45,432 nucleotides of DNA from positions 1 to 45,432 of IMG/VR virus record IMGVR_UViG_3300001848_000600. One strand, 5' to 3'. Source of the stretch: a virus. A program made the position numbers and the translations under genes. How positions within the stretch are numbered: the first letter of the stretch is position 1; every line of letters starts with the position of its first letter. Shown piece after piece: positions 17,319 to 36,038 of this stretch. Under the pieces are notes generated by a model. The model saw only the letters and a program-made list of their open reading frames with translations, ran no database searches and was not told where the DNA came from.

Positions 17319-17345
17319 ATTATATCAGTTTATGTGAATTGTCAA
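17319..17345 (-). promoter_or_regulatory. Sigma70-like promoter giving a probable leaderless mRNA
   Basis: Minus strand TTGACA (17345-17340), 15-base spacer, perfect TATAAT (17324-17319). The start of the RNase H-like gene follows after only 3-9 bases with no ribosome-binding site. The promoter lies inside the 3' end of the GIY-YIG-like gene. Confidence 0.55.
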
Positions 17346-17745
17346 CAAAAATTTTTCTCAAATGCGATCTATGAACTTTTACAAAAATCCAATCGTTGTA
17401 AAATTTATCGGATTCCAAAACTTCATATTCAAACTGAAATTTTGCTTCAATATAGTTCATTTCACCACGAGTCTTGCACAATCTAAGAATAGTTCTAACA
17501 AATTTATTTTCGCCAACAGATTTGACTTCTTCAATTAAATATTTATTAGACCCCCAATATTTTTTCCAATCGGAATCAACTAATATTCTTTTTTTCTTGC
17601 CCTTTATTTGTTTCGTTTTTTTGAATTTCAACATTTTTTTACCAATATACATTTTGCCAGTATCGATACGAGAAATCATATAAACAAAACCTATGTAAGG
17701 AACAAGTTCAGCCTCATCTATTTCCTTTCCTTTGTATATCCACAT
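17320..17745 (-). CDS. GIY-YIG-like nuclease
   Basis: 141 residues. GFVYMISRIDTGKMYIGKKM is the GIY-YIG signature (VYM...YIG), followed by SDWKKYWGSNKYL, FVRTILRLC and MNYIEAKFQFEYEVL with a candidate catalytic Glu. This is a T4-superfamily family of small nucleases, free-standing or repair-like, with no clear target. It has its own TATAAATA promoter, and a hairpin covers the region from that promoter to the start codon (see the leader feature). Confidence 0.75.
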   Translation of the reverse strand: MWIYKGKEIDEAELVPYIGFVYMISRIDTGKMYIGKKMLKFKKTKQIKGKKKRILVDSDWKKYWGSNKYLIEEVKSVGENKFVRTILRLCKTRGEMNYIEAKFQFEYEVLESDKFYNDWIFVKVHRSHLRKIFVDNSHKLI

Positions 17746-32550: not shown

Positions 32551-33129
32551 ATGATTGATATTTATAATTCATCAGATTACAGAAAAATTTTCATGAAAAC
32601 ATATGGTTCTATACCTAAAGACAAGGACGGTAGATCATATGAAATTCATCATATAGATGGAAATAATTCAAATAATTCTCCAGAAAATTTGAAAGCTGTT
32701 TCTATAGAAGAACATTATTATATTCATTTGTCTCAAGGTGATTATGGCGCTTGTTTATTAATATCAAGTAGAATGACTACAACACCAGAAGAAAAGAGCA
32801 ATTTGGCTAGATCTCATGTCATTAAACAACTTGAAGAAAATAGACATCCATGGAAAACAGACTCATATCGTGAATCTCAAAGACTAAGAGCTTTATCAGA
32901 AAATAATCCATTTCTTGGAGGTGAAATTCAAAGAAAAAGTAGTAGAAAACGTGTAAGGGAAGGCACACATCATCTTTTAGGCGATAAAACAAATTTTAAT
33001 ATGATTAAAGAAGGTAAGCATCCATCTCAAAAAATATGGACATGCGAACATTGTGATATTATCGGTAAAGGAACAACTAATTATATTAGATGGCATGGTA
33101 ATAATTGCAAAAAATTAATAAAAAAATAA
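32551..33129 (+). CDS. HNH homing endonuclease (free-standing)
   Basis: 192 residues on the strand opposite its neighbours, with its own late promoter and AGGAG 8 bases from ATG. YEIHHIDGNNSNNSPENLKA is the HNH core and EHYYIH follows. The C-terminus WTCEHCDIIGKGTTNY and WHGNNCKK is a putative zinc finger. Such enzymes cleave phage genomes lacking the insertion and spread by recombination repair. It separates the HAD gene from a candidate RNA gene. Confidence 0.85.
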   Translation: MIDIYNSSDYRKIFMKTYGSIPKDKDGRSYEIHHIDGNNSNNSPENLKAVSIEEHYYIHLSQGDYGACLLISSRMTTTPEEKSNLARSHVIKQLEENRHPWKTDSYRESQRLRALSENNPFLGGEIQRKSSRKRVREGTHHLLGDKTNFNMIKEGKHPSQKIWTCEHCDIIGKGTTNYIRWHGNNCKKLIKK

Positions 33130-33493: not shown

Positions 33494-34696
33494 CTATGCA
33501 AATCCTTCAAATTTCTTAGAAAATTTAGACCTATTTTGAAAAAATTCATTATCTCGTTGACCATATTCTGTTTTATCCATAATTGGAATGTCGTCCTGTA
33601 TATTCTCCTGTTCTGTTTGATCTACATCGTATAATTTCATTTTCGATCTATCGATACCGATAACAAATCGGCGATTTTTAGATAAATCGCTGTATCTATT
33701 TTTAAGTTGTTTTACCATAATTTGATTGAACGATTCTAACTGTTCATTGCTAATAAGAGCAAACATCAAATCGGCAGTCGCAGGTAATCCGAAACTTTCC
33801 GAAACATCTGTCAAAACGACATCGGACGACGCATACCCACTTCTTGTTGTTTGTGTAGCTGTAACTATAGGAAGATCGTGTTCAACAGCTAAACCACGAA
33901 ATTCTTCCGCAATAGCCTTTACATAAGTATAACTATTTACCGACGCGGTATATTTTACTCGGCTAGAAGCACAAATATTGAGATAATCGATATAAATGAT
34001 ATCTGGAATAAAATTCTTTTTCAATTTCAATTCATTCAATAAATGTCTGAAATTTGCTGCACCAGCAGTAGACGTTGGATATTCTTTGATAATAAGCTTA
34101 CCAACAGTTTTCTTTTTTACCCTATCGATTTTTTTCATGAAAGAATCTTTTGGAACGGTTTCAATTTCATCCAAAGACATATCCAATAGATTTGCATCGA
34201 TACGTTCTGCAATTCTTTCTTCAGCCATTTCCATAGTAATATAAAGAACATTTTTACCATCAAGCAAATTGCTAGCGGCAAAATGACACATCGCAAGACT
34301 TTTCCCAACACCGGTATTATGGCTTGAAATTCCATTAGTATAATATCTATGATTTTCATGTTCTACATTAATATCTACGATAGGAATTATATTGCCGGTA
34401 TAACGAACAGCTCCCCTTTCAAATCCATTTTTTGTTAAAAAATTTGCATATTCAATTTTAGATAATTGTAGCGCGCTTATCCATCCATTATCAGTTTCAA
34501 ATAAATGTTCTGCATTGCATAATACAGATTCACTATTATTTTCCAACTGAAGGCTGTATTCTTCATAAATTCCCTTATCGATAAAGAAATTTACTCCTAC
34601 CCATCCATCGGGAGAATCTACTTCAATTTCATAATTTTCTTCTAACATGGTTTTTATTTTACTGATAGGGATTTCAATTTCAGTCCAAATTTTCAT
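33494..34696 (-). CDS. 41: Replicative helicase gp41, C-terminal part, fused to C-intein
   Basis: 400 residues from ATG 34696 (AGGAG upstream). Residues 1-127 are an intein C-fragment: block B VLCNAEHLFETDNGW (like gp41-1 inteins), block F IVDINVEHENHRYYTNG and block G SSHN, followed by +1 Thr. Residues 128-400 are the RecA-like core of a DnaB/gp41 helicase beginning in the P-loop TGVGKSLAMCHF, with ITMEMAEERIAERI, IIYIDYLNIC (Walker B), TATQTTRSG and MKQLKNRYSD-like arginine region. Splicing to the N-part would rebuild AGTGVGKS and a 468-residue helicase, close to T4 gp41 (475). Confidence 0.93.
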   Translation of the reverse strand: MKIWTEIEIPISKIKTMLEENYEIEVDSPDGWVGVNFFIDKGIYEEYSLQLENNSESVLCNAEHLFETDNGWISALQLSKIEYANFLTKNGFERGAVRYTGNIIPIVDINVEHENHRYYTNGISSHNTGVGKSLAMCHFAASNLLDGKNVLYITMEMAEERIAERIDANLLDMSLDEIETVPKDSFMKKIDRVKKKTVGKLIIKEYPTSTAGAANFRHLLNELKLKKNFIPDIIYIDYLNICASSRVKYTASVNSYTYVKAIAEEFRGLAVEHDLPIVTATQTTRSGYASSDVVLTDVSESFGLPATADLMFALISNEQLESFNQIMVKQLKNRYSDLSKNRRFVIGIDRSKMKLYDVDQTEQENIQDDIPIMDKTEYGQRDNEFFQNRSKFSKKFEGFA

Positions 34697-34710
34697 TAAA
34701 AAATTTCTCC

Positions 34711-34754
34711 TATAAATAATATTGTAGATCGCGATGCTACCAACATCCATCTAC
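34711..34754 (+). promoter_or_regulatory. Late promoter and leader hairpin of the second homing endonuclease
   Basis: Plus-strand TATAAATA at 34711-34718, then GTAGAT 34724-34729 pairing with ATCTAC 34749-34754. The loop shares CGCG, TGC and CATCC with the first endonuclease leader, and AAGGAG follows. Confidence 0.55.
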
Positions 34755-34783
34755 TCTAACGTCTGAAAAGGAGACATCAGCAA

Positions 34784-35419
34784 ATGTATTTACGCATTTA
34801 TAATAATCTATGTTCATCAAATTGTCAACGAAAAGAATTGTGGTTGCCAGGTTCTGGTATTCATAGACATCATATATTACCAAAACATATGGGCGGATTG
34901 GATGAAGATAATAATTATACATATCTATATCCACGCGAACATCAAATAGCACATTTTTTATTATGGAAAATATATAAAAATCCAAATGATCTTAGATCAA
35001 TGCATATGCTTGGTGCAAAATTAACTATTTCACAGAGAAAAATTGTAGGCATTTGGTGTAGAGACAACAAAATAGGAATTCATGGTTCTTCCTCTGAAAA
35101 TAGAAAACAGTGGGCTTTAAAAGGATTAGAAACACAAAAAGAATCAAATAATAAAAAAACATTTTATTATTGGTCTACAGAAACTGGCAGAAAAGAACGA
35201 TGTGCTTTGGGGGGAAAATCTGGTTCTAAAACACAAATAAAAAATAAAATTGGTATATTCGATTCTAATAAAAGAACTGAATATGCTAAACTTGGCGGAC
35301 AATCATTGAAGGGAATGATTTGCGTAACCAATGGTATTCATAGAACTAGAATTAAACCTCATTTATTAGATGAATATGTGTCAAATGGTTATCGTTTAGG
35401 ATTTACTCTTTTTTCCTAA
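34784..35419 (+). CDS. HNH homing endonuclease between the halves of gp41
   Basis: 211 residues on the strand opposite to gp41. HRHHILPKHMGGLDEDNNYT is the HNH core, EHQIAHFLLWKIY follows, and Gly-rich KRTEYAKLGGQSLKG and RIKPHLLDEYVSNGYRLG look like NUMOD-type DNA-binding modules. Its 3' end overlaps the last codons of the gp41 N-part by 17 bases. It lies exactly where the intein is broken, as in phage 'fractured genes', and probably mobilises the broken-intein locus. Confidence 0.88.
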   Translation: MYLRIYNNLCSSNCQRKELWLPGSGIHRHHILPKHMGGLDEDNNYTYLYPREHQIAHFLLWKIYKNPNDLRSMHMLGAKLTISQRKIVGIWCRDNKIGIHGSSSENRKQWALKGLETQKESNNKKTFYYWSTETGRKERCALGGKSGSKTQIKNKIGIFDSNKRTEYAKLGGQSLKGMICVTNGIHRTRIKPHLLDEYVSNGYRLGFTLFS

Positions 35420-36038
35420 ATCTTATTCTAACTTTTGTATCTGGATGAACACATCCTGCCAATATAACATTCAATGTCTTTCTAGAAAGCCCGCCTTTAG
35501 TGATAAGATTCATGTATTCCAGATTGAAAGGCATTTTTGCTTCTTTACGATGATAAAAATCGTAACGAGTTTCAGCGTCTTCCAAAAAACTATGACCAAT
35601 ATTAGAATCGAAACTTACAGCCAGAGCATCGGATAAAATCTGTGGTATTGCGCCTTTATCATATTTGCTATTTTTATTATCCAAAATTTGAATAGAATCC
35701 ATAATAGCATTATAAACGGCTTTTTCTTGACAAAATTTTTCTGTTTTTTCTACAAGCCAATCTACTTCTGTTTTAGGATCATAAGAGAGTTGATCTATGA
35801 TATCTTTGCACATATCATGAATTGGTTGACTTATACCAGTTTTTGAATTCATTTCAACTTCAATCGCTTCCTTTGATGGAAAGCGATTGAATTTGTTTAC
35901 ATAATTTTCAATCAATTCAAAAATAATTTTGTCGGAAATATCATGAAAATATTCCGATTTTAGAAAAGGTATTACTTTGCGTGCATAATCGTCACGATTT
36001 ATAATATTACCAAAAATTACTTGTTCAAAAGACGCCAT
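35403..36038 (-). CDS. 41: Replicative helicase gp41, N-terminal part, fused to N-intein
   Basis: 211 residues. Residues 1-195 are the gp41 N-terminal domain and linker (MASFEQVIFGNIINRDDYAR, KSEYFHDISDKIIFELI, then YMNLITKGGLSRKTLNVILAG). Residues 196-211, CVHPDTKVRIRFRKKE, are an intein N-fragment starting with the required Cys and ending at TAA. The break is just inside the Walker A loop. At 16 residues it is a very short N-intein, the atypical split type. GGAGG lies 4 bases before ATG. Both halves must be made and trans-spliced for replication. Confidence 0.93.
   Translation of the reverse strand: MASFEQVIFGNIINRDDYARKVIPFLKSEYFHDISDKIIFELIENYVNKFNRFPSKEAIEVEMNSKTGISQPIHDMCKDIIDQLSYDPKTEVDWLVEKTEKFCQEKAVYNAIMDSIQILDNKNSKYDKGAIPQILSDALAVSFDSNIGHSFLEDAETRYDFYHRKEAKMPFNLEYMNLITKGGLSRKTLNVILAGCVHPDTKVRIRFRKKE

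What the first reader, a model, noticed from the sequence alone, without database searches (positions are those of the whole stretch)
33494..36038. gp41 helicase broken by an atypically split intein with a homing endonuclease in the gap
The N-part ends LNVILAG then CVHPDTKVRIRFRKKE and stop; the C-part begins with a 127-residue C-intein ending SSHN, then TGVGKS. Joining restores the Walker A loop and a 468-residue helicase. The N-intein of only 16 residues is among the shortest type known; an antisense HNH gene with its own late promoter fills the gap. The layout belongs to the phage 'fractured gene' class (gp41-1 and relatives), but this sequence and the very N-terminal split make it a promising new splicing pair.
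Basis: partly seen in the sequence, partly recalled or inferred. Interest (0 to 1): 0.87.

Follow-up and report, generated by a model that had tools for sequence, protein, structure and literature searches.

The report
Phage helicase split by VidaL-type intein
A phage's DNA-unwinding enzyme is made as two separate proteins, each carrying part of a self-cutting 'intein' that should stitch them together, with a selfish DNA-cutting gene lodged in the gap; the arrangement is of a known kind, but close relatives with and without that gene show how such split proteins can arise and persist.

Summary
Confirmed. gp41 helicase (T4-like phage) is encoded as two pieces: 195-aa N-extein + 16-aa IntN (35403-36038, -), and 127-aa IntC + 273-aa C-extein (33494-34696, -). 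An antisense HNH gene (34784-35419, +) fills the gap. The extein halves meet exactly at the Walker A loop (LAG|TGVGKS). The intein is VidaL-type (phmmer E 9e-12; model of a contiguous relative matches VidaL at TM 0.89), split after its first hairpin strand. It is not gp41-1-like: gp41-1 sits at another gp41 site and is split elsewhere. IMG/VR holds a large family at this site: 143 loci with both junctions, 115 split, 28 contiguous. Catalytic residues are kept in all 52 distinct split inteins of the tree set. Near-identical phages differ only in the gap: HNH + split versus contiguous without HNH (L138/L137), and HNH versus a 34-nt gap, both split (L106/L096). Several near-identical inteins sit in helicases 15-30% diverged, identity dropping within 15-30 nt of the intein ends, as homing would leave. 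Most likely protein trans-splicing restores gp41, and the HNH helps move the whole unit. Neither splicing nor cleavage was tested. New member of a known kind ('fractured gene', atypically split intein).

The parts
35454..36038 (-). gp41 N-extein (195 aa), ends ...LNVILAG
   Evidence: PHROG 19 positions 161-361, E 5e-39
35406..35453 (-). IntN, CVHPDTKVRIRFRKKE (16 aa), followed by stop 35403-35405
   Evidence: Cys1 invariant in 60 distinct inteins of the family
34784..35419 (+). antisense HNH homing-type endonuclease gene (211 aa); 3' end overlaps the N-half by 17 nt
   Evidence: PHROG 655 E 4e-18; H29, N44, H53 invariant in 44 gap HNH proteins
34768..34773 (+). Shine-Dalgarno (AAGGAG) of the HNH gene
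   Evidence: read directly
34711..34718 (+). TATAAATA, T4-type late promoter motif of the HNH gene
   Evidence: conserved in place in 33 of 38 distinct antisense-HNH lineages
34706..34711 (-). Shine-Dalgarno AGGAGA of the IntC-gp41C gene
   Evidence: read directly
34316..34696 (-). IntC (127 aa, MKIWTE...SSHN)
   Evidence: VidaL homolog, catalytic residues invariant
33497..34315 (-). gp41 C-extein (273 aa, begins TGVGKS), stop 33494-33496
   Evidence: PHROG 19 positions 362-602, E 4e-75; Pfam DnaB_C E 3.5e-13

Best explanation
gp41 is expressed as two polypeptides. The 16-aa IntN (one beta strand carrying Cys1) docks into the nearly complete IntC and completes a HINT fold. Standard class-1 splicing (Cys1 thioester, transfer to Thr+1, Asn127 cyclisation) then joins G195 to T196 and rebuilds the Walker A loop, giving a 468-aa helicase. 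The gap gene encodes an HNH homing endonuclease read from the other strand from a late promoter. It sits inside the intein, in the turn after its first long strand (site S1), and in doing so supplies the stop for IntN and the start signals for IntC. The unit IntN-HNH-IntC moves between gp41 alleles as one mobile element. HNH genes are gained and lost: loss can leave a permanently split intein, or the intein can be found contiguous. Shown here: anatomy, conservation, presence/absence pairs, sharp identity boundaries. Inferred: splicing, HNH cleavage, homing target, direction of the contiguous/split change.
For: Extein halves abut exactly in PHROG 19 and in intein-free relatives (LAGTGVGKS). Intein matches VidaL by sequence; the AlphaFold model of contiguous relative L118 (pLDDT 97.4) matches VidaL 6vgv at TM 0.89, rmsd 1.5 A, and its strand 7-13 / turn 14-17 / strand 18-23 places the break in the turn. 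52/52 distinct split inteins of the tree set keep Cys1, block-B N and H, block-F D and H, penultimate H, last N; all have +1 T. dN/dS for IntN, IntC and HNH is 0.04-0.26 in pairs not saturated. L138 (HNH, split) v L137 (contiguous): flanks 99.0% over 6147 nt, 100% over the 74 nt available beyond. L106 (HNH) v L093/L096/L099 (34-nt gap, IntC start signal kept): flanks 98-99%. Intein 97-100% identical in helicases about 15-30% diverged, identity falling within about 15-30 nt of the intein ends. Some relatives make gp41 in three pieces with a gp41-1-type split intein as the second joint.
Against: No splicing, cleavage or protein data. dS is saturated between the window and its nearest relative, so selection on this copy itself cannot be measured. 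One relative (L150, left out of the tree set) lacks the last intein residues including His-Asn and the +1 Thr (dead, or an assembly error). The homing pairs come from few lineages (mainly the L092/L100 and L179-L247 groups), so they are not nine independent events.
Confidence: 0.9

Rival explanations
1. The helicase works as two non-covalently assembled pieces without splicing, as in Aeh1 NrdA or T4 topoisomerase genes broken by mob endonucleases; the intein pieces are relics.
For: HEG-split phage genes that work in pieces are known (PMC2988022; PMC10448857).
Against: The break lies inside the Walker A loop with foreign residues on both ends. All catalytic intein residues are invariant in 52 distinct split inteins, and IntN and IntC are under purifying selection. 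Relatives without the HNH (34-nt gap) keep both intein parts intact.
Confidence: 0.03
2. The pieces are joined at the RNA or translation level (intron, ribosomal bypass) rather than by protein splicing.
For: T4 has group I introns and gene 60 bypassing (own knowledge).
Against: The two coding parts continue as intein protein up to the stop and from a start codon; contiguous relatives encode the same 138-154 aa intein in frame. No RNA-family search was run on this gap.
Confidence: 0.02
3. Dead locus or assembly artefact: the phage has lost gp41.
For: Metagenomic contig; no isolate.
Against: 100% identity over 12 kb in another contig; same layout in many other lineages; helicase motifs intact.
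Confidence: 0.02
4. The split is real and splices, but the HNH does not mobilise the intein; it merely uses the gap as a safe harbour, and intein transfer is ordinary phage recombination. (A rival to the mobility part only, not to splicing.)
For: Free-standing endonucleases often cut at a distance from their own gene (PMC2988022); contiguous HNH-free inteins also sit in diverged helicases (L215, L114).
Against: Identity blocks end near the intein boundaries, as homing into the intein-free site would leave; HNH under purifying selection and catalytic residues invariant.
Confidence: 0.25

Closest known systems
VidaL split intein (PDB 6vgv/6vgw), an atypically split intein with 16-aa IntN
   Same: Same fold (TM 0.89 for a contiguous relative), same IntN length and break after the second strand ('S1', PMC13014065), Cys1 chemistry, clear sequence homology (E 8.7e-12).
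   Different: VidaL is far closer to UvsX P-loop inteins (PA5oct UvsX, E 4e-40), which sit in GESG|SGKS and take Ser+1; this one sits in gp41 LAG|TGVGKS with Thr+1. About 28% identity for the modelled relative.
'Fractured genes' (Dassa et al. 2009, doi 10.1093/nar/gkp095; paper not held here, known to me from its abstract)
   Same: Conserved phage DNA enzyme broken by a split intein with a free-standing endonuclease gene and its control elements in the gap.
   Different: Classical members (gp41-1, NrdJ-1, IMPDH-1; own knowledge) have long IntN and short IntC; here the break is at S1, and the endonuclease is an antisense MobE/PHROG 655-like HNH rather than the Vsr-like type.
gp41-1 split intein (PDB 6qaz)
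   Same: Inserted in the same helicase family; split.
   Different: Another insertion site (TRSGY|SSSDV, own knowledge), canonical split position, only weak similarity (E 0.011). Occurs in addition in relatives such as L108 and L118.
PA5oct-group UvsX (NC_071039, gp276-gp274)
   Same: P-loop intein split after about 17 aa, a separate 477-aa ORF in the gap, IntC homologous (33% identity).
   Different: Other gene; gap ORF is in sense and not HNH-like (looks Vsr/EDxHD-like by eye, no database hit). SCTP-2 UvsX has the contiguous version.

Membership tests
Intein (HINT splicing domain, class 1) | Cys/Ser at position 1, block-B His, C-terminal His-Asn, Cys/Ser/Thr at +1 | tested here: met
   C1, N61-x-x-H64, H126-N127, T128; invariant in 52 split and 8 contiguous distinct inteins
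Intein (HINT splicing domain, class 1) | HINT fold | tested here: met
   Tested on contiguous relative L118 (pLDDT 97.4; VidaL TM 0.89); the window's own two chains could not be folded as one
Intein (HINT splicing domain, class 1) | Splices | not testable with these tools
   needs expression
Atypically split intein, VidaL type (split at S1) | Short IntN (about 15-37 aa), break after the second strand, separately translated IntC | tested here: met
   IntN 16 aa + stop; IntC with its own SD/ATG; break in the turn between strands 7-13 and 18-23 of the model
Atypically split intein, VidaL type (split at S1) | Sequence kinship to VidaL | tested here: met
   phmmer E 8.7e-12 over 140 aa
Fractured gene | Conserved enzyme broken by split intein with a free-standing endonuclease gene in the gap | tested here: met
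gp41-1 intein family | Insertion at TRSGY|SSSDV and canonical split (long IntN) | tested here: not met
   corresponding site TRSGY|ASSDV intact in the window; IntN only 16 aa
HNH homing endonuclease | H-N-H catalytic residues | tested here: met
   H29, N44, H53 invariant in 44 gap HNH proteins
HNH homing endonuclease | Cuts or nicks the HEG-less allele and is copied into it | not testable with these tools
   indirect only: presence/absence pairs and identity boundaries

The most novel reading that the evidence does not exclude
A nested mobile element in which a free-standing antisense HNH gene, lodged at site S1 of an intein, mobilises the whole intein between phage helicases, and its gain or loss toggles the intein between cis-splicing and trans-splicing forms; near-isogenic natural pairs capture both states, so the origin of split inteins can be tested directly.
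Probability: 0.5. Interest if true: 0.7.

Novelty: new member of a known kind. Interest (0 to 1): 0.58.

Why it matters
How a split intein arises from a contiguous one is an open question; endonuclease insertion has been proposed as the missing link. Here the same intein at the same site is found contiguous, split with an HNH gene, with a decaying HNH gene, and split with no HNH at all, including pairs of phages about 98-99% identical outside the gap. These pairs allow direct tests of what the endonuclease does to the intein and of whether a split, once made, is locked in. The family also offers many ultra-short-IntN inteins with a Thr+1 junction for protein labelling.

Tried and rejected
Kinship with gp41-1: rejected as main relative. 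Search of 84,980 bacterial and archaeal genomes for the IntC: pattern matches but no relative, so the family looks phage-restricted at that sensitivity. Late promoter in the window alone: not significant; only the conserved position across lineages carries weight. Polarity of the contiguous/split change: undecided; parsimony needs 8 changes for 8 contiguous groups, but well-supported branches force only 2. dN/dS for the window's own intein: saturated. Pfam on gap ORFs of L090, L120, L089 and PA5oct gp275: nothing clear. The VidaL paper (PNAS 2020) and the fractured-gene paper (PMC2677866) are not held, so whether this very gp41 site was listed there could not be checked.

Full report
What is there. 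The window's gp41 gene is in two pieces on the minus strand. The N-half (35403-36038) has 195 residues of helicase followed by CVHPDTKVRIRFRKKE and a stop. The C-half starts at ATG 34696, preceded by AGGAGA, and has 127 residues of C-intein ending SSHN, then TGVGKS and 273 residues of helicase in all. PHROG 19 is matched 161-361 by one and 362-602 by the other, so nothing is missing or duplicated. Between them, on the plus strand, lies an HNH gene of 211 aa (34784-35419; PHROG 655, E 4e-18), with a Shine-Dalgarno and TATAAATA at 34711-34718, which abuts the Shine-Dalgarno of the C-half on the other strand. The HNH 3' end overlaps the N-half by 17 nt. The stretch is identical over more than 12 kb in another IMG/VR contig of 75.8 kb.

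What the intein is. Joined for a sequence search, the 143-aa intein's best solved relative is VidaL (6vgv, E 8.7e-12); gp41-1 is a weak hit (E 0.011). A contiguous natural relative (L118, 138 aa) was modelled with pLDDT 97.4, and its best structural match is again VidaL (TM 0.89, rmsd 1.5 A). In the model strand 7-13 is followed by a turn at 14-17 and strand 18-23; the break in the split relatives falls in this turn. That is the S1 position named for VidaL and PolB16 in PMC13014065. VidaL itself is much closer to UvsX inteins such as that of Pseudomonas phage PA5oct (E 4e-40), which interrupt GESG|SGKS. So the window's intein belongs to a related group in gp41 (LAG|TGVGKS). gp41-1 marks another site, which is intact here.

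The family. Scans of IMG/VR gave 156 loci with this IntC, 143 of them with both junctions: 115 split and 28 contiguous. IntN is about 14-21 aa long in all split loci. After dropping incomplete or odd loci, 137 remained: 76 with an intact antisense HNH, 11 with a sense HNH, 5 with another ORF as main gap gene, 19 without intact endonuclease, 26 contiguous; 60 after removal of near copies. In the 60, Cys1, block-B N and H, block-F D and H, the penultimate H and last N never vary, and +1 is always T, against a mean column majority of 72%. L150, left out of this set, lacks the end of the intein with His-Asn and the +1 Thr. These loci are the best matches to the query, not a random sample, so the proportions are not frequencies in nature, and several contigs are copies of one phage.

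Gap genes. Antisense HNH proteins form one group and sense HNH proteins another (SH-aLRT 100), so site S1 was probably occupied at least twice; L090 has a third, unrelated ORF. H29, N44, H53 are invariant in 44 proteins. TATAAATA pointing into the HNH gene occurs in 33 of 38 distinct antisense-HNH lineages and in none of 7 with sense or other genes; shuffles give 1.6 of 38. It survives in 3 of 7 lineages without an intact HNH, as a footprint.

Gain and loss. (a) L138 has IntN + stop, an antisense HNH of 278 aa, and IntC with its own start; L137, L141 and L143 have the contiguous intein. L138 and L137 are 99.0% identical over 6147 nt up to the insert and 100% over the 74 nt available after it. 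(b) L106 has the HNH; L093, L096 and L099 have the same intein, flanks 98-99% identical, and only 34 nt between stop and start, with GAGGA and ATG kept. L097/L098 (169 nt) and L104/L105 (387 nt, HNH cut to 75 aa) are other deletions of the same HNH gene. So the split outlives the endonuclease. (c) L114/L125 are contiguous with intein DNA 99-100% identical to L108/L122 where compared, but helicase flank only 67-75%; the former IntC start Met is still there (..RKFMSEW..), which suggests, without proving, re-fusion by deletion. These two contigs end inside IntC. (d) L215 and relatives are contiguous with intein DNA 99% identical to split L192, flanks 70 and 79%. Direction is not settled by the tree.

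Mobility. Pairs with intein identity of 97% or more and both flanks clearly lower (thresholds chosen by me, <85% and <88%) gave nine non-overlapping pairs from a few lineages. Identity is 98-99% inside the intein, 90-94% in the adjoining 15 nt upstream and 30 nt downstream, and 72-83% beyond. This is the pattern expected when the whole intein, not just the HNH, is copied into an intein-free helicase with short co-conversion. The adjoining P-loop codons are themselves conserved, so part of the 90-94% may be protein constraint. Contiguous inteins are among these pairs, so HNH may have been lost after transfer, or transfer may not always need it. dN/dS is 0.04-0.20 for intein parts and 0.09-0.26 for HNH in pairs that are not saturated.

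How it works. Trans-splicing is the best explanation (0.9): the short IntN strand completes IntC, Cys1 and Thr+1 transfer the N-extein, Asn127 cyclises, and the Walker A loop is restored. Shown: anatomy, homology, conservation, selection in relatives. Inferred: the reaction, its rate, the HNH target. Supporting context: L108/L122 encode gp41 in three pieces, with a gp41-1-type intein (E 2e-34 to 6qaz) as the second joint.

Compared with what is known. The layout is that of fractured genes, and the split type is that of VidaL; both are published, so this is a new member of a known kind. I could not read the fractured-gene paper or the VidaL paper here, so I cannot exclude that this gp41 site was already listed. 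What I have not seen described, within the few papers I could search, is the set of near-isogenic phages that differ by HNH presence and by contiguous versus split intein.

Noticed in passing
L108:334-3483 and L122:334-3483: gp41 in three pieces: VidaL-type split intein with antisense HNH at the P-loop and a gp41-1-type split intein at TRSGF|SNSDV; two different trans-splicing joints in one gene.
   Followed up: partly
L195, L203, L204, L212 (gap between IntN and IntC); L120 gap: Extra sense-strand ORFs (187-278 aa, not HNH-like) sit between the HNH and IntC, i.e. other genes appear to be carried within the fractured helicase.
   Followed up: no
window 32551-33129 (+): A second HNH_3 homing-type endonuclease gene (PHROG 12324, E 9e-37) lies just beyond the 3' end of gp41.
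   Followed up: partly
window 17320-17745 (-): 141-aa protein that matches PHROG 447 (named 'NAD synthetase', E 8e-39) and, more weakly, homing endonuclease families (E 2e-11).
   Followed up: no
L167:760-3766 (Pseudomonas phage PA5oct gp276-gp274): UvsX of PA5oct is a VidaL-type fractured gene: IntN CLPETAKVKIRLSKKQS at the end of gp276, a 477-aa ORF, then IntC in gp274; annotated only as hypothetical proteins and UvsX-like recombinase.
   Followed up: partly
L150:2911-3260: IntC lacks YYTNGxSSHNT including His-Asn and the +1 Thr: a dead intein or an assembly error.
   Followed up: no
L179-L247 group (e.g. L184, L192, L230): IntC start codon has no Shine-Dalgarno and stands directly next to the antisense TATTTATA late-promoter motif, unlike in the window.
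   Followed up: no
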